NCBI GenBank assembly: GCA_944322855.1 | Contig: CALUQG010000010.1 | Coordinates: forward strand, 1-61,215 | DNA: 61,215 bases | Reading direction: 5' to 3' | Source: Candidatus Gastranaerophilales bacterium | GTDB taxonomy: Bacteria; Cyanobacteriota; Vampirovibrionia; Gastranaerophilales; Gastranaerophilaceae | Shown here: piece after piece, positions 25 to 31,237 of the stretch | Layout: every line of letters starts with the position of its first letter | Position numbering within the stretch: position 1 is the first letter of the stretch | The notes under the pieces: model-generated | Seen by the model: the letters and a program-made list of their open reading frames with translations, nothing else | Told to the model about the DNA's origin: nothing | The model's database searches: none | Program-made: the position numbers and the translations under genes

Positions 25-80
25 CGGACACTTCGTGGACTTTTCAAGTAATTTGGTTTGATTATTTTCGGACACTTTCG
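25..80. repeat. Short direct repeat, possible IS-end debris
   Basis: The motif CGGACACTT occurs twice (25-33 and 69-77), 44 bases apart, in a stretch with no credible gene. Closely spaced repeats of this kind are found at the ends of some IS21-like elements, but no transposase or complete terminal inverted repeat is visible. The remainder of 1-201 shows nothing further. Confidence 0.2.
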
Positions 81-201
81 GCAGGTTGAAACCTAAACAC
101 AAAGCCACTTTTCAGCCAATAATCATTTTAACCGTACACGATTGAAATGTCTGCACAAATACAATACACATACACAAAGTACTAATTTTATTACAATTAT
201 T

Positions 202-232
202 AAAAGCCCAAATCATTAAGATTTGGGCTTTT
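202..232 (-). terminator. Rho-independent terminator of tRNA-Ser
   Basis: A perfect 13-bp stem (AAAAGCCCAAATC pairing with GATTTGGGCTTTT) with a 5-base loop lies directly downstream of the minus-strand tRNA-Ser. On the minus strand the stem runs into TTTTAATAATT, which fits an intrinsic terminator. Confidence 0.65.
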
Positions 233-235
233 AAA

Positions 236-326
236 TGGAGGAGGAGGTGGGATTCGAACCCACGGTACGCTACAAACGTACGACAGTTTTCAAGACTGCT
301 CCAATCAACCGCTCTGGCACTCCTCC
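236..326 (-). tRNA. tRNA-Ser(TGA)
   Basis: On the minus strand the acceptor stem GGAGGAG pairs with CTCCTCC. The anticodon loop CTTGAAA contains anticodon TGA, the variable region is long as expected for serine, and the T-arm reads GTGGG-TTCGAAT-CCCAC. A CCA follows the discriminator in the genomic sequence. This would read UCA and related serine codons. Confidence 0.93.
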
Positions 327-470
327 AAAGAGTTAATATTATATTTAATTTGAGTAAGAATATATTAATAAAAAAAATATTAAAAGTAAAGCTTTTTCTT
401 ATTAAAAAATTCTGTTGCATGAAAAAATTTATATGATATAAATATTTTATAACTTTAATACAATATTAAT

Positions 471-544: not shown

Positions 545-793
545 TTTTTTGTTGTCATGTTTTTAGTATATTAGTGTTTATGCATTAATTTTTTGTGTCT
601 ACATATTTGGCATATTTAATCATGAGTACAAGTTTTTGGGCACATGTTTAAAATAATTTCATCCTTTTGTTTTTATTGAGAATTCTTTCGGTATTATATT
701 TAGGTGTTTTATTCTGGTTTTATGCTAAATAACGCTAAACTTAACGAAAAAGTTTTTGACAATGCATTTTGTCTAAAATACAATAGAAAAACC

Positions 794-5991: not shown

Positions 5992-6486
5992 TTATAGAAT
6001 TTTATTTCTCATTAAAAATTTTTCAATCCAGCCCAAGAGCTCTGGGTATCTTTTCAAATTGTGTCCCATTTTAACCATTTCGGCTTTGTTTGAAAGAAAA
6101 TCGCCAATGTGATTGAATTGCTTGTAAATCAGAGAATACATTCCAGTCCGGTCAGCACCGGCTTTGCAGTGGATATGGATTTTCCCGTTTGACTTTTTGA
6201 CTGTGTCTATGATGTTTAAAAATTCGGATATATTTTTTTCATCAGGAATTTTTGTGTATGACGGTATGTTATGGTATTTCATATTGTAGGAGTTTACAAC
6301 TGACTTTTCATCAAAATCAATGCCTGAAACAGCCATTGTCCTAAAATTGATAATATCAGTTATACCTTGATTTTTTAACCAAGCGAAATCACTGGAGGAA
6401 GGCTGTGCAGAGCGTGAAACATAATCATCAATTTTTGAATAGTTTGGCGGTTTGCCTTTAAACGAAACAATCTTTACTACATTCAT
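5992..6486 (-). CDS. Tyrosine/dual-specificity phosphatase-like protein with SFKG N-terminus
   Basis: The cysteine-phosphatase signature HCKAGADRTG (106-115; C107 nucleophile, R113) is intact. The order DDYVSRSAQPS, then IINFR, then HCxxGxDRTG resembles the tyrosine-phosphatase-like/DSP superfamily found in bacteria. At 164 residues it is a single catalytic domain. Residues 7-11 read VSFKG directly after a short start, a motif shared with unrelated proteins in this window. It lies 54 bases after the end of the glycan genes on the same strand, so it could be the last gene of that operon. The substrate (protein, lipid or sugar phosphate) cannot be told from sequence. Confidence 0.8.
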   Translation of the reverse strand: MNVVKIVSFKGKPPNYSKIDDYVSRSAQPSSSDFAWLKNQGITDIINFRTMAVSGIDFDEKSVVNSYNMKYHNIPSYTKIPDEKNISEFLNIIDTVKKSNGKIHIHCKAGADRTGMYSLIYKQFNHIGDFLSNKAEMVKMGHNLKRYPELLGWIEKFLMRNKIL

Positions 6487-26802: not shown

Positions 26803-28239
26803 ATGAAGATATCTTCAACATATTTTAATAATTATCCAAAAGGGAACTTATACGCTGCCGGTAAAATTTATAACAGCGGAATTGATTATAACTTGCAATT
26901 GAATTATTTAAAAGACTATCAATGTGATTCTGTTAGTTTTAAACGAATTCCTGATACCACTTTTATAAATGATTTGCGCGAATTGCCTAATTTAACATGC
27001 GGCTGCTGTGGTATTAAAATGCTAAAAAACTCGGTGGTTAATGACTTTTTAAACAGAAAAATATATTATCCGGCATCTATTGCTTTGAAAAGGATAAAGT
27101 CTGAAAACTATTTTAATGAAAGTCATGCTTCTGATGAAATGAAAACTGCATATGCTTTTTTGAAGAATTTTGCAGATAGAAATCCCAAACTTACAATGCA
27201 GGATATTCTGGCTAAAAAGGCTGTAAAGGCAAAAAGACAAACTTTTCCTAAAGAAGTCAGTGCTGCTTGTGAAACAATCAGGGATATGACAAAACTTGTT
27301 GCTCATAATTCTAAGTATATGATTGATGAAATCTCAAAACTCAATCCTAAATTTCATAAAACCGAGAAAAAAGTTTTCAAAGAACTGCAGATGCTTGCCA
27401 AAGAATATCCTCAAGAAACATTCTATGATATTCTTAACAAATCTGAAGTCAATAAATATTACCTGACAAGACTGCAGAAGAAACAAATTGATATACTGGA
27501 CAATGTTGTTGGCGCAGTTGAAGATGCTCCTGAAAATATAAAAACTATGGTTCTTGATGTTACGGAAAAAGCCAGAGATATTTTTGAAAAAGAAAGTGTT
27601 GAAATACTTCATAAAAGAGGTAGGGTAATATCTCATTATCAATCTTTGCTTAATGATTATAAAGATGATAGTTGTGTTCAAAAAGTATTAGAAATTATAA
27701 ACGAGCTACCTGATTCAAAAACAGATTCCGATGCTTTTTTGATTAAAGGTGCTCAAAAAAGCTCAAATGCTATCGTGGAAATTTTACTAAGCCGTGTTAG
27801 AAGTACATTTGAACATGTAAAGCCGCATAAAAGAGAAGGCGACAACGGTCCGAGTAATATTTTTAACTATATTGCGCTTTGCGGTAAATGTAATTCCGAA
27901 AGACAAAGAACAGGATACGATATATTTACCAAAGCTCATCCTGAGATGATTGAAAATGAACAAATCCAGATTAATAAAATTATACATTTTATTAATCATG
28001 GAATACTTGCAGGGTATGATGAGTACCCTGTAAAAATAAAAAAAGCTCTGGATATCGAATCAAAAGGAGCAATAAAGATTAATATTAATAAACTTAATTT
28101 GCTACAGGCCAAAAACAACAGAAAACTCCGTCAGAAGAAAATAATTGAAAAAAAGAAAAGTCTTAACGGCAGTAAAGCAATCTATAAATTTGGCAAAGGA
28201 TTGTTTAAAAGAAATGTAATGGGAAAGAATGATAAGTGA
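26803..28239 (+). CDS. Split-HNH/zinc protein, paralogue 1
   Basis: A 478-residue protein with an HNH-nuclease-like C-terminal segment. It has EHVKP (337-341; candidate H338), N355 and LCGKCNSER (C360, C363). The usual first zinc knuckle seems to sit far upstream as LTCGCCGIKM (C66, C68, C69), with about 268 lysine/glutamate-rich, mainly helical residues between the halves. A conserved ELPDSKTDSDAFLIK block precedes the HNH part and a DEYPVKIKKAL tail follows it. Residues 44-47 read VSFK. It is the first of three tandem paralogues. It may cleave or bind nucleic acid; no partner or target is visible. Confidence 0.75.
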   Translation: MKISSTYFNNYPKGNLYAAGKIYNSGIDYNLQLNYLKDYQCDSVSFKRIPDTTFINDLRELPNLTCGCCGIKMLKNSVVNDFLNRKIYYPASIALKRIKSENYFNESHASDEMKTAYAFLKNFADRNPKLTMQDILAKKAVKAKRQTFPKEVSAACETIRDMTKLVAHNSKYMIDEISKLNPKFHKTEKKVFKELQMLAKEYPQETFYDILNKSEVNKYYLTRLQKKQIDILDNVVGAVEDAPENIKTMVLDVTEKARDIFEKESVEILHKRGRVISHYQSLLNDYKDDSCVQKVLEIINELPDSKTDSDAFLIKGAQKSSNAIVEILLSRVRSTFEHVKPHKREGDNGPSNIFNYIALCGKCNSERQRTGYDIFTKAHPEMIENEQIQINKIIHFINHGILAGYDEYPVKIKKALDIESKGAIKININKLNLLQAKNNRKLRQKKIIEKKKSLNGSKAIYKFGKGLFKRNVMGKNDK

Positions 28240-29552
28240 TGAGGATACTGCCTGTTTACACTCCAAATAGAAAATATACAAGTATAAATTCTCAAAATAA
28301 CCGGAATTTTACCCGTTATAACAACTCTTTGTCTGATTTTAAATCTATTGATACAGTTTCGTTTAAATCAAGGGTCAAACTTATTACGGATTTAAGAAAT
28401 ATACCTGATATCCCTTGTGCTTGTTGTGGTGTAACTACAATTCCAAATGGTGTCATTGACAAATTTATGGAAGAAAAAATTTATTATTCTGCAAGAAAAG
28501 CTATGGATGTTATAGAATCGAGCGGCATATTTTGTAAAAGTAAACTTAATCCTCATCAGCTGCAAGCATATAAATTTTGCAAAATGATTTCCCGTCTTTA
28601 TGAAGGTACGCTCTCTTCTATACTTGACAGGCCTGCTGTTGTTCATAAGATGGGTGAATTATCGAAAGATGTTGTAGCTGACATAAAACTAATTGAAAAA
28701 ATGACAAAAAGAGTCTTCCATGATTCATCATATCTTATAAAAGAATTGGAACAATTTGAGCCGAAGATGAATAAAGTGGAAAAAGAAGCATTTAATATAC
28801 TAAGAAAGTATTCCAAAATTTATCCTAAAAAATCGTTTACAGAAATATTTAATGAGCCTAAATTATTCAACAAACATTTATTAAAGCTTGAAAGGAAACA
28901 GGGAAATATTCTGTGGCAGATTGACTGTATCGCAGAAAATATGTCTACTCCATCAAAACAAAAAATTCGCAGGCTTGTGAAAAAATCTTATAACATTATT
29001 TTGAAAGAATCTTTTTTAATAAAAAATAAAAGAAGCCGAATTATTGAAATGTTTGAAAATATTGATGAAAAAATTCCTGAAAGAGAACTTATGCAGGAGA
29101 TTCTTTTTCTTGTAAACCAGCTTCCGAGTTCAAAAAATAGTGTAAGTGCATTTATAGTAAAATATCGGGATTACAATCCGAATAAAATTGCTGAAAGAAT
29201 TTTAAGAGGTTCAGCCGCTACAATTGAACATGTTAAGCCTGCCAGAAGAGTTAATGACCCGGGTGAGAATGAAATAAAAAATTATATAGTTCTTTGTGCA
29301 AATTGCAATTCCGAGCGAGGACAAATTCCGTATTCTGAATTTATAAAGACACATCGTGATATGCCTCATAACATTCAAAAATATATAGAAAAAGTCATTG
29401 AATATATAAATAACGGCAGGCTGAACGGATATGGTCAATATCCTCAGCTTATAAGACAGAGAGTAATCGACGAATCTGAAGGTAAGATAAAACTTGATAT
29501 ATCAAGTTTAAATTTAAGAAATTACGTTCAAAAAAATAAAAATAGAAAATGA
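28239..29552 (+). CDS. Split-HNH/zinc protein, paralogue 2
   Basis: A 437-residue paralogue of the previous gene. Its ATG shares one base with the upstream TGA, so translation is coupled. It has VSFKS near residue 40, IPCACCGVTT, a long helical insertion, then QLPSSKNSVSAFIVK, IEHVKPARR and VLCANCNSERG. The key histidine, asparagine and cysteines of the HNH-like segment are all kept. It diverges from paralogue 1 mostly inside the insertion. Confidence 0.75.
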   Translation: MRILPVYTPNRKYTSINSQNNRNFTRYNNSLSDFKSIDTVSFKSRVKLITDLRNIPDIPCACCGVTTIPNGVIDKFMEEKIYYSARKAMDVIESSGIFCKSKLNPHQLQAYKFCKMISRLYEGTLSSILDRPAVVHKMGELSKDVVADIKLIEKMTKRVFHDSSYLIKELEQFEPKMNKVEKEAFNILRKYSKIYPKKSFTEIFNEPKLFNKHLLKLERKQGNILWQIDCIAENMSTPSKQKIRRLVKKSYNIILKESFLIKNKRSRIIEMFENIDEKIPERELMQEILFLVNQLPSSKNSVSAFIVKYRDYNPNKIAERILRGSAATIEHVKPARRVNDPGENEIKNYIVLCANCNSERGQIPYSEFIKTHRDMPHNIQKYIEKVIEYINNGRLNGYGQYPQLIRQRVIDESEGKIKLDISSLNLRNYVQKNKNRK

Positions 29553-29561
29553 TATATGGTT

Positions 29562-30659
29562 ATGAAAATTCAAACAACATTTTTTAAATATAATATAAAC
29601 AATCAAACAGGAGCTAATGCTTCAAGCATTAGTGTTATTCCTAAAAATACAGGAATAACAAAAGATGTTGTTAGTTTTTCTTCAGCAAACGTTGACAAAG
29701 AGGATGCATATAACTTGAGAAATCTGCCGGGGCTGACCTGTGCCTGCTGTGGTAAAAAGATGATAAATGAGGCAGATTATCGTCGTTTGAAAACAAAAGA
29801 TTTTCAAGGCCCTGCATATCCGGTTTTGAAAAAGCTGAAACCTTTTGTTCCTTTTATGAAGCCTACAGAAAAAACTGTTTATAATTTATTAAAACGTGCA
29901 TCAAGTAAAGATCCGAATGCTGATTTGAATACTCTTTTAAGAAAAAGATACTATTATCATCTCGGACGTCTTGAAGTAAAGCAGCTTGGTATAATTAATA
30001 AAGCAATTTCTCAAAAACTTGAGTTGAGCAGTGAATCTCAGGCTGAATTAGACAAAACTATGCAAAAAGTAAGAGAAATTTTATTTGTAGAGCCTAAACA
30101 TTCAAGACAGAAAAGGGAACGTGTTATCAATGAGTTTGTTAAACTGAAACAAATTTGTCCTGAAAAAAATGAAATAGATAAAATTATAAAAGTTGTTCAA
30201 ACTTTGCCAAACTCAAAAGATGATGTTGATTCTTTTATAATAAAATATACGCAGCGAGGCAACAGGGAAATCGGACAAAGACTCTTATCTCCGTCTTTAC
30301 CCACTTTAGATCATATAAAACCAGCCTCAAAAAGCGGACATGATGATTTTTCTAATCTTATTGTCATGTGTGAAAAATGTAATAGCGCAAGAGGCTCCAT
30401 CCATTATCAAGAATGGTTTAAAATCCATCCGGAAATGCCTGAAAATATACAAAAAAATATCAATAAGATAATTAAAGCAATTAATACAAAAAAGCTGCAG
30501 AATTTTGATACTTATCCGCTTGATATAAAAGAAACACTGGAAAAAGAAACAAACGGGCAGATTATTCTTAATATAGATGATTATCATGCCCCGGTGAGAG
30601 AGTTGATGGTGTTAGATGATTTAGATTCCGCTTCATCGACAATAAATTTTGGTGTGTAA
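29562..30659 (+). CDS. Split-HNH/zinc protein, paralogue 3
   Basis: A 365-residue, shorter paralogue. It has VVSFSS near residue 35, LTCACCGKKM, a shorter helical insertion, TLPNSKDDVDSFIIK, then LDHIKPASKSGHDDFSN and VMCEKCNSARGS, which is the most canonical HNH sequence of the three. The start at 29562 aligns with the MKI start of paralogue 1; an ATG six bases earlier is possible. Its last 76 bases overlap the 3' end of the convergent DUF262-like gene. Confidence 0.75.
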   Translation: MKIQTTFFKYNINNQTGANASSISVIPKNTGITKDVVSFSSANVDKEDAYNLRNLPGLTCACCGKKMINEADYRRLKTKDFQGPAYPVLKKLKPFVPFMKPTEKTVYNLLKRASSKDPNADLNTLLRKRYYYHLGRLEVKQLGIINKAISQKLELSSESQAELDKTMQKVREILFVEPKHSRQKRERVINEFVKLKQICPEKNEIDKIIKVVQTLPNSKDDVDSFIIKYTQRGNREIGQRLLSPSLPTLDHIKPASKSGHDDFSNLIVMCEKCNSARGSIHYQEWFKIHPEMPENIQKNINKIIKAINTKKLQNFDTYPLDIKETLEKETNGQIILNIDDYHAPVRELMVLDDLDSASSTINFGV

Positions 30660-31237
30660 TCTTTCAGTATAAGCATTTTGTTTATTTCTGTACTCAAACC
30701 TGCAAAAGAAAGTGCTATTTGAGAAGGCTTTTTGGAATTTCTTTCTTCAATAAACCCGATTACAGTATCCAGAATTTCAAGAAGCATTGCCCTGTTAATA
30801 TGTGCAAATTCAAAATCTTCAAACACTTCCATTAAAAAAGGATATGCATCTTTTGCGTTGTAAGCATTAATCTTTTTTATTTTTATACGAATATCTCCGT
30901 CAGAGATATCAGCGAATGTAATTTTTCTGTAATATACAGAATATCTGAATATATTTTTTATGATTATTTCTTTATCTTGAAAACGGGAGGCTTTTTGATA
31001 AAAATCCACAAAATTTGCAAATAGATTTTCTTTTTTTGTGATAATTCCGTTATTTTGGATGGTCAAATAATCAATAAAAAATTTTTCTAACAAATTTTTA
31101 TTGACTTTTTCACCAGCCTCAAGATATGCGTTTTCCATATCAAGCCAGTATGTCGTATAAACATCAAGCAATCCTGAGTTTATAAGTTCGGCTGATATAA
31201 ATTTTCTTATTCTGGATATATTGCTTAAATTATTCAT
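30584..31237 (-). CDS. DUF262/GmrSD-like fragment
   Basis: A 217-residue protein that resembles the middle/C-terminal helical region of DUF262 (GmrSD-type) proteins: YTTYWLDMENAY, FFIDYLTIQN, FANFVDFYQKAS, RIKIKKINAYNAKDAYPFL and LLEILDTVIGFIEER. The N-terminal catalytic DUF262 part with its DGQQR-type motif and the C-terminal HNH part of GmrSD are absent. It may be a decayed restriction gene or a stand-alone derivative. The match is from memory and moderate. It converges on the third split-HNH gene with a 76-base overlap. Confidence 0.5.
   Translation of the reverse strand: MNNLSNISRIRKFISAELINSGLLDVYTTYWLDMENAYLEAGEKVNKNLLEKFFIDYLTIQNNGIITKKENLFANFVDFYQKASRFQDKEIIIKNIFRYSVYYRKITFADISDGDIRIKIKKINAYNAKDAYPFLMEVFEDFEFAHINRAMLLEILDTVIGFIEERNSKKPSQIALSFAGLSTEINKMLILKDYTPKFIVDEAESKSSNTINSLTGA

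What the first reader, a model, noticed from the sequence alone, without database searches (positions are those of the whole stretch)
26803..30659. Three tandem paralogues with an HNH-like domain split by a very long helical insertion
All three proteins have a CxCC knuckle near the N-terminus and a second CxxC knuckle (CGKCNSER, CANCNSER, CEKCNSAR) only after EHVKP, EHVKP or DHIKP. In a canonical HNH nuclease the first knuckle lies a few tens of residues before the histidine; here about 200-270 mainly helical residues intervene. A conserved LPxSK...AFxIK block just before the HNH part and a conserved tail after it show one unnamed family. Tandem duplication with divergence mainly in the insertion fits recognition of variable targets, as in conflict systems, but no partner gene is clear.
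Basis: partly seen in the sequence, partly recalled or inferred. Interest (0 to 1): 0.75.

Follow-up and report, generated by a model that had tools for sequence, protein, structure and literature searches.

The report
Gut-bacterial nuclease split by helical insert
A group of gut bacteria related to cyanobacteria carries, in nearly every genome, its own family of predicted DNA-cutting enzymes whose zinc-holding core is interrupted by 180-300 extra residues and whose front end bears a short tag also found on unrelated proteins, which hints at an undescribed protein-sorting signal.

Summary
Three adjacent genes (26803-28239, 28236-29552, 29556-30659) encode paralogous HNH proteins. Knuckle 1 (CxxC; the extra middle Cys is not essential) lies 188-269 residues before the catalytic His; canonical HNH proteins have 11-29. 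AlphaFold2 models, structurally aligned to zinc-bearing Cas9 HNH domains, bring knuckle 1 and the C-terminal HNH into one domain with a helical bundle spliced between. In 124 relatives the catalytic [DE]-H and the last Asn are invariant (124/124), with Gmet_0936 'HNN' spacing. Zinc cysteines are lost in some branches, and knuckle 1 is never lost while knuckle 2 stays.

The family is near-universal in its GTDB family (Candidatus Gastranaerophilales; 183/191 genomes), usually multicopy, absent from sampled outgroups, syntenic within the genus and under purifying selection, insert included (dN/dS about 0.14). The conflict-system reading is not supported. Most likely these are resident metal-dependent DNA endonucleases; the substrate is unknown.

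Unexpected: a disordered N-terminal leader ends in a near-invariant F-x-[GSAR] motif (78/80). The same kind of leader precedes unrelated enzymes (18/18 GNAT homologues, 4/6 metallophosphoesterases, phosphatase, amylase), suggesting a lineage-specific targeting or processing signal. New variant of zinc-ribbon HNH nucleases.

The parts
26803..28239 (+). Paralogue 1 (P0001, 478 aa): split zinc-ribbon HNH protein with long insert
28236..29552 (+). Paralogue 2 (P0002, 437-438 aa; GTG at 28236 or ATG at 28239): split zinc-ribbon HNH protein with long insert
29556..30659 (+). Paralogue 3 (P0003, 367 aa): split zinc-ribbon HNH protein with short insert (lacks the first about 90 insert residues)
26803..26943 (+). 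P0001 disordered leader, ending in the VSFK motif (26932-26943)
   Evidence: pLDDT below 50 for residues 1-50; F of the motif 78/80 in non-redundant relatives
26998..27009 (+). P0001 zinc knuckle 1 (C66, C69)
27022..27702 (+). P0001 helical insertion (about residues 74-300)
   Evidence: helices in AF2 model, pLDDT mostly above 90
27706..27747 (+). P0001 LPDSKTDSDAFLIK block
   Evidence: Pro and Phe nearly invariant
27799..27903 (+). P0001 HNH core: E337-H338, N355, C360/C363-N364, R367
28356..28367 (+). P0002 leader motif VSFK
28416..28427 (+). P0002 zinc knuckle 1 (CACC)
29214..29321 (+). P0002 HNH core (IEHVKP...CANCNSER)
29670..29681 (+). P0003 leader motif VSFS
29739..29750 (+). P0003 zinc knuckle 1 (C62, C65)
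29763..30200 (+). P0003 helical insertion (about residues 70-215)
30204..30245 (+). P0003 LPNSKDDVDSFIIK block
30300..30401 (+). P0003 HNH core: beta 249-253, D252-H253, N267, C272/C275-N276, R279, alpha 273-279

Best explanation
These are three members of a Gastranaerophilales-specific family of zinc-ribbon HNH (HNN-type) endonucleases. One beta-beta-alpha-metal domain is encoded in two pieces: the first zinc knuckle sits after an N-terminal leader, the chain then makes a helical bundle of about 120-240 residues, and returns to supply the LP block, the catalytic [DE]-H, two Asn and the second knuckle. The four cysteines probably hold one structural zinc; the Asp/Glu and last Asn hold the catalytic metal and the His is the general base, so the protein should nick or cut DNA with Mg2+ or Mn2+. 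The helical bundle, tethered on both sides to the active-site domain, probably acts as a clamp, lid or oligomerisation module. The family is a resident, vertically inherited part of the cell rather than a mobile or arms-race nuclease, and the leader with its F-x-[GSAR] motif is a docking, targeting or processing signal shared with other proteins of this lineage. Shown: sequence anatomy, conservation, distribution, purifying selection. Predicted: fold, one zinc. Inferred: catalysis, DNA substrate, role of the insert, role of the leader.
For: Motifs and HNH profile hits. AF2 of P0003 (pLDDT 79.8, pTM 0.72) and P0001 (83.0, 0.76) with most of the core above 90. VIA-align: P0003 residues 49..334 (105 aligned) on AnaCas9 HNH 552..666, Z 7.3, and about 20 further Cas9 HNH entries with a similar N-terminal anchor; P0001 44..421 on NbaCas9 321..424. 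[DE]252, H253 and N276 in 124/124, N267 in 122, R279 in 121; spacing D-to-N and N-to-N of 15 and 9 residues is identical to Gmet_0936 D53-H54, N68, N77 (PMC3765158). Knuckle loss: both present 56, both lost 12, only knuckle 2 lost 12, only knuckle 1 lost 0 (Fisher 4.5e-8, not corrected for kinship). 183/191 genomes of the family; outside it only HNH-core-level matches. Median dN/dS 0.14, HNH 0.05. Shared leader.
Against: No biochemistry exists. Z 7.3 is middling and the coordinates could not be inspected, so zinc geometry is inferred from alignment ranges. On the tree knuckle 1 changed state only about 3 times, so the kinship-aware test of joint loss has no power. Sublineages without zinc cysteines show that zinc is not obligatory. 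Substrate and role of the insert are unsupported by any direct evidence; the insert has no specific fold match.
Confidence: 0.62

Rival explanations
1. Exported or compartment-targeted effector nuclease: the leader sends the protein out of the cytoplasm (to the surface, another cell, or an internal compartment), where it degrades foreign or environmental nucleic acid.
For: A polar, disordered leader with the same F-x-[GA] motif is on GNATs, phosphatases, amylase, metallophosphoesterase, an FtsH-like protease and a helicase; it is dispensable for the domain in two metallophosphoesterase orthologues; several cargo types resemble effector repertoires.
Against: The leader has no hydrophobic signal-peptide core; the own genome has no contractile-sheath protein and only one secretin; no immunity gene is evident next door; cargo such as helicase and protease looks cytoplasmic.
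Confidence: 0.2
2. Conflict-system nuclease whose insert diversifies to recognise variable targets, kept as tandem paralogues.
For: Tandem paralogues; insert identity between paralogues 16-35% against 41-44% for the HNH part; weak PtuB profile hits.
Against: Insert under purifying selection (dN/dS about 0.14); the same trio is conserved between species; near-universal presence and fixed synteny in the genus; PtuB hits cover only the HNH core and no PtuA-like neighbour was found.
Confidence: 0.08
3. Domesticated homing or mobile-element HNH endonuclease that spread by duplication.
For: HNH proteins are typical of homing elements; up to 8 matches per genome.
Against: No relative found in a scan of 2.9 million viral contigs and only HNH-core hits in phages; recurrent chromosomal positions.
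Confidence: 0.04
4. Two independent metal sites, or a non-catalytic zinc scaffold: knuckle 1 is a separate zinc ribbon and the C-terminal part is no longer a nuclease.
For: Some members lack cysteines; knuckle 1 alone weakly resembles other zinc-ribbon knuckles (RNA polymerase subunit P, E=0.67).
Against: Catalytic residues are more conserved than the cysteines; structure alignments join both knuckles in one domain.
Confidence: 0.06

Closest known systems
Gmet_0936 / GVE2-type zinc-ribbon HNH (HNN) nicking endonucleases (PDB 4H9D; PMC3765158, PMC5304195)
   Same: [CxxC]2 zinc site, D/E-H, N, N catalytic residues with identical spacing to Gmet_0936 (15 and 9), second knuckle directly before the last Asn
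   Different: In Gmet_0936 the first knuckle is 13 residues before the His; here 182-309 residues with a helical bundle between; no such leader reported there
HNH domain of type II-C Cas9 (AnaCas9 4OGE, AcCas9 8D2K) and IscB
   Same: Best structural and sequence matches of the HNH part; AnaCas9 D581 and N606 correspond to D252 and N276
   Different: No full-length match to guide-RNA nucleases: NCBIfam IscB score 30.8 against a cut-off of 175; the Cas9 HNH is contiguous
Pfam HNH PF01844 / HNH_5 PF14279
   Same: Core matched in all three proteins; P0003 well above cut-off
   Different: First 11 or more profile positions (first knuckle) unmatched because of the insertion
Septu PtuB
   Same: HNH core only (E 8e-4)
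   Different: No PtuA partner found; different architecture

Membership tests
Zinc-ribbon HNH (HNN) endonucleases | Catalytic [DE]-H ... N ... N in beta-beta-alpha-metal order and spacing | tested here: met
   124/124 for [DE]252, H253, N276; N267 122/124; spacing as in Gmet_0936
Zinc-ribbon HNH (HNN) endonucleases | Two CxxC knuckles forming one zinc site | tested here: inconclusive
   All four Cys in 83/124; AF2 plus VIA ranges join them; joint loss pattern; no coordinates or metal data
Zinc-ribbon HNH (HNN) endonucleases | First knuckle within a few tens of residues of the His | tested here: not met
   182-309 residues in 118 members against 11-29 in controls; hence variant, not typical member
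Zinc-ribbon HNH (HNN) endonucleases | Beta-beta-alpha fold | tested here: met
   E249-253, E268-272, H273-279; alignment to Cas9 HNH; prediction only
Zinc-ribbon HNH (HNN) endonucleases | Nuclease activity | not testable with these tools
   needs purified protein
Pfam HNH PF01844 | Score above gathering cut-off 21.4 | tested here: inconclusive
   P0003 34.2 and P0002 22.6 above; P0001 20.4 below
IscB / Cas9 | Full-length equivalog score (RuvC plus HNH) | tested here: not met
   30.8 bits against 175; HNH part only
Septu (PtuAB) | PtuB next to a PtuA ATPase | tested here: not met
   Five neighbours scanned with PADLOC: no PtuA; the upstream ATPase is BcrAD_BadFG

The most novel reading that the evidence does not exclude
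The nucleases are cargo of an undescribed N-terminal sorting or processing system of Gastranaerophilales: a short, polar, disordered leader ending in F-x-[GA] (F-x-[GSAR] in the HNH family) placed directly before otherwise unrelated domains (split HNH nucleases, GNATs, phosphatases, metallophosphoesterases, amylases, protease, helicase), recognised by an unknown receptor or protease.
Probability: 0.45. Interest if true: 0.82.

Novelty: new variant of a known kind. Interest (0 to 1): 0.55.

Why it matters
It suggests that the HNH zinc ribbon, one of the most widespread nuclease folds, tolerates insertion of a whole helical domain between its two zinc knuckles while keeping its active site, and that profile libraries see only half of such proteins. 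The family marks almost every genome of an uncultured, gut-dwelling sister lineage of cyanobacteria, yet has no name or function. The shared leader, if it is a signal, would open a way to study protein sorting in a lineage with no genetics, and its motif makes the cargo set directly listable.

Tried and rejected
Viral origin: no relative in a scan of 2.9 million viral contigs; no full-length fold match in BFVD. A 21-row alignment was too diverse for the search for related loci, so the one genome-contig scan used the three window proteins and found only Gastranaerophilales MAGs. Two possible cyanobacterial relatives (E 1e-9) are HNH proteins with canonical 13-residue spacing. PDB look-up of the insert gave only generic helical bundles. 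Diversifying selection in the insert: not seen. A kinship-aware test of joint knuckle loss had too few events. Unbiased k-mer scans for the leader were swamped by hydrophobic N-termini; targeted tests gave modest support, and family-by-family comparison was clearer. Literature searches found no description of the family or the leader; only open-access papers are held.

Full report
What is there. The window belongs to a Candidatus Gastranaerophilales genome (inferred from the titles of the closest named relatives; the window is contig C10 of a 2.0 Mb, 98% complete assembly). Three ORFs follow each other at 26803-28239, 28236-29552 and 29556-30659. Paralogues 2 and 3 are 36% and 33% identical to the first. 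Each has: a leader; a VSF[KS] motif; R-x-[LI]P-x-x-x-C-x-C-C-G; a helical stretch; LPxSK...xFxxK; [DE]HxKP; N; CxxCNSxR; and a conserved tail. Pfam sees only the C-terminal part of the HNH profile, because the first knuckle is 188-269 residues upstream.

Is the long gap real? In 118 relatives the gap between the second knuckle-1 cysteine and the catalytic His is 182-309 residues, median 200. HNH proteins taken from sister families and phages have 11-29, and two cyanobacterial HNH proteins 13. The essential knuckle is CxxC: C62 116/124 and C65 102/124, the middle Cys 73/124.

Do the two knuckles meet? AlphaFold2 with 15 family members gave confident models (P0003 mean pLDDT 79.8, P0001 83.0; leader 1-46 or 1-50 below 50). 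Structural alignment placed P0003 residues 49..334 (105 aligned) on AnaCas9 residues 552..666, a continuous HNH domain, with Z 7.3; about twenty other Cas9 HNH entries anchor the same N-terminal piece. P0001 aligned in the same way (44..421 on NbaCas9 321..424). The simplest reading is that the chain leaves the HNH domain after knuckle 1 and returns at the LP block. Evolution agrees: of 80 non-redundant members (below 70% identity) 56 keep both knuckles, 12 have lost both, 12 have lost only knuckle 2, and none has lost only knuckle 1. The losses need at least 3 and 7 changes on a tree, too few for a kinship-aware test.

Is it a nuclease? [DE]252, H253 and N276 are present in 124/124 members, N267 in 122 and R279 in 121. 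The spacing from [DE] to the first Asn (15) and between the two Asn (9) equals that of Gmet_0936 (D53-H54, N68, N77; zinc by C38, C41, C73, C76), an Mn-dependent nicking enzyme (PMC3765158). D581 and N606 of AnaCas9 coordinate the Mg2+ in its HNH motif (PMC5304195). Members that lost the zinc cysteines keep the catalytic residues, so catalysis rather than zinc binding seems to be what selection holds. Activity itself is untested.

Distribution and evolution. 183 of 191 genomes of the same GTDB family have the family, 1-8 matches each. In class- and phylum-wide samples, genomes outside this family match only at HNH-core level. Within the genus the locus sits between a BcrAD/BadFG-type gene and a convergent 217-aa plus TPR gene pair; several other genera have it beside YebC/TsaB/TsaE-like genes (identified by reading the sequence, not by profile). 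The trio is conserved as orthologues in L066 (HNH part 81-89% identical, insert 48-72%). Median dN/dS over 27 close pairs is 0.14 overall, 0.05 in the HNH, 0.14 in the insert and 0.33 in the leader. This is a resident, conserved gene family, with no sign of diversifying selection.

The leader. The most unexpected feature is the leader. It is predicted disordered and its sequence is poorly conserved, yet the Phe of the terminal motif is present in 78 of 80 non-redundant members, more than any zinc cysteine. The same kind of N-terminus precedes unrelated proteins. Eighteen of 18 GNAT-like homologues have a variable leader ending in F-x-[GA] immediately before the domain. Four of six close metallophosphoesterase homologues have it and two start directly at the domain (a seventh, distant homologue was not counted). 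It is also on a DSP-type phosphatase in this window (5995-6486, minus strand), an amylase-like enzyme, an FtsH/M41-like protein and a DSHCT-type helicase. Sample-wide statistics are modest: forward motif against reversed motif in the first 80 residues 22:11, 7:2 and 7:2 in three samples of this family (my sum 36:15; the first sample helped to define the motif), 4:1 in outgroups; [SN]FK[GSA] is 3.7-fold enriched near N-termini in the first sample (p=7e-4) and not significant in the two smaller ones. I treat it as a strong lead, not a proven signal.

Mechanism. Shown: anatomy, conservation, distribution, selection. Predicted: one split beta-beta-alpha-metal domain with one zinc. Inferred: metal-dependent nicking or cutting of DNA, with the helical bundle acting as clamp, lid or oligomerisation arm because both its ends are tethered to the active-site domain; the leader as docking, targeting or processing signal. 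The conflict-system idea has little support: no defence partner, no hypervariability, near-universal presence.

Verdict. A real, lineage-specific new variant of zinc-ribbon HNH nucleases. The split is the clear result; the leader is the part with the greatest upside.

Noticed in passing
window 26803-26943, 28239-28367, 29556-29681, 5995-6486(-); L227-L244; L219-L222; L083:16597-18645; L072:14616-16388; L114:7763-10381(-): Shared N-terminal leader ending in F-x-[GA] on unrelated Gastranaerophilales proteins (18/18 GNATs, 4/6 metallophosphoesterases, amylase-like, phosphatase, protease, helicase); candidate targeting or processing signal.
   Followed up: partly
L004 / L091:12563-14593 (own genome contig C16); many 660-711-aa frames: A fourth relative: a 677-aa protein with two HNH-family modules in tandem, the first degenerate, the second with knuckle, DH and CxxCN; similar-sized frames recur across the family, here beside a ClpC-like gene.
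   Followed up: partly
L023, L026, L033, L117, L119, L125, L131 and others: Sublineages that lost zinc cysteines (e.g. SRDWNSGR, ASREWNTKR) but keep the catalytic residues, a natural zinc-free series.
   Followed up: partly
L029, L112, L113, L114, L027, L028, L031: Family members with long C-terminal, coiled-coil-like extensions (500-800 aa in total).
   Followed up: no
window 30584-31237 (-): 217-aa protein, convergent with and overlapping the end of paralogue 3, matches PADLOC 'Orf5' (E 4.5e-15, partial) but no Pfam family; syntenic with the nuclease locus in 8 genomes.
   Followed up: no
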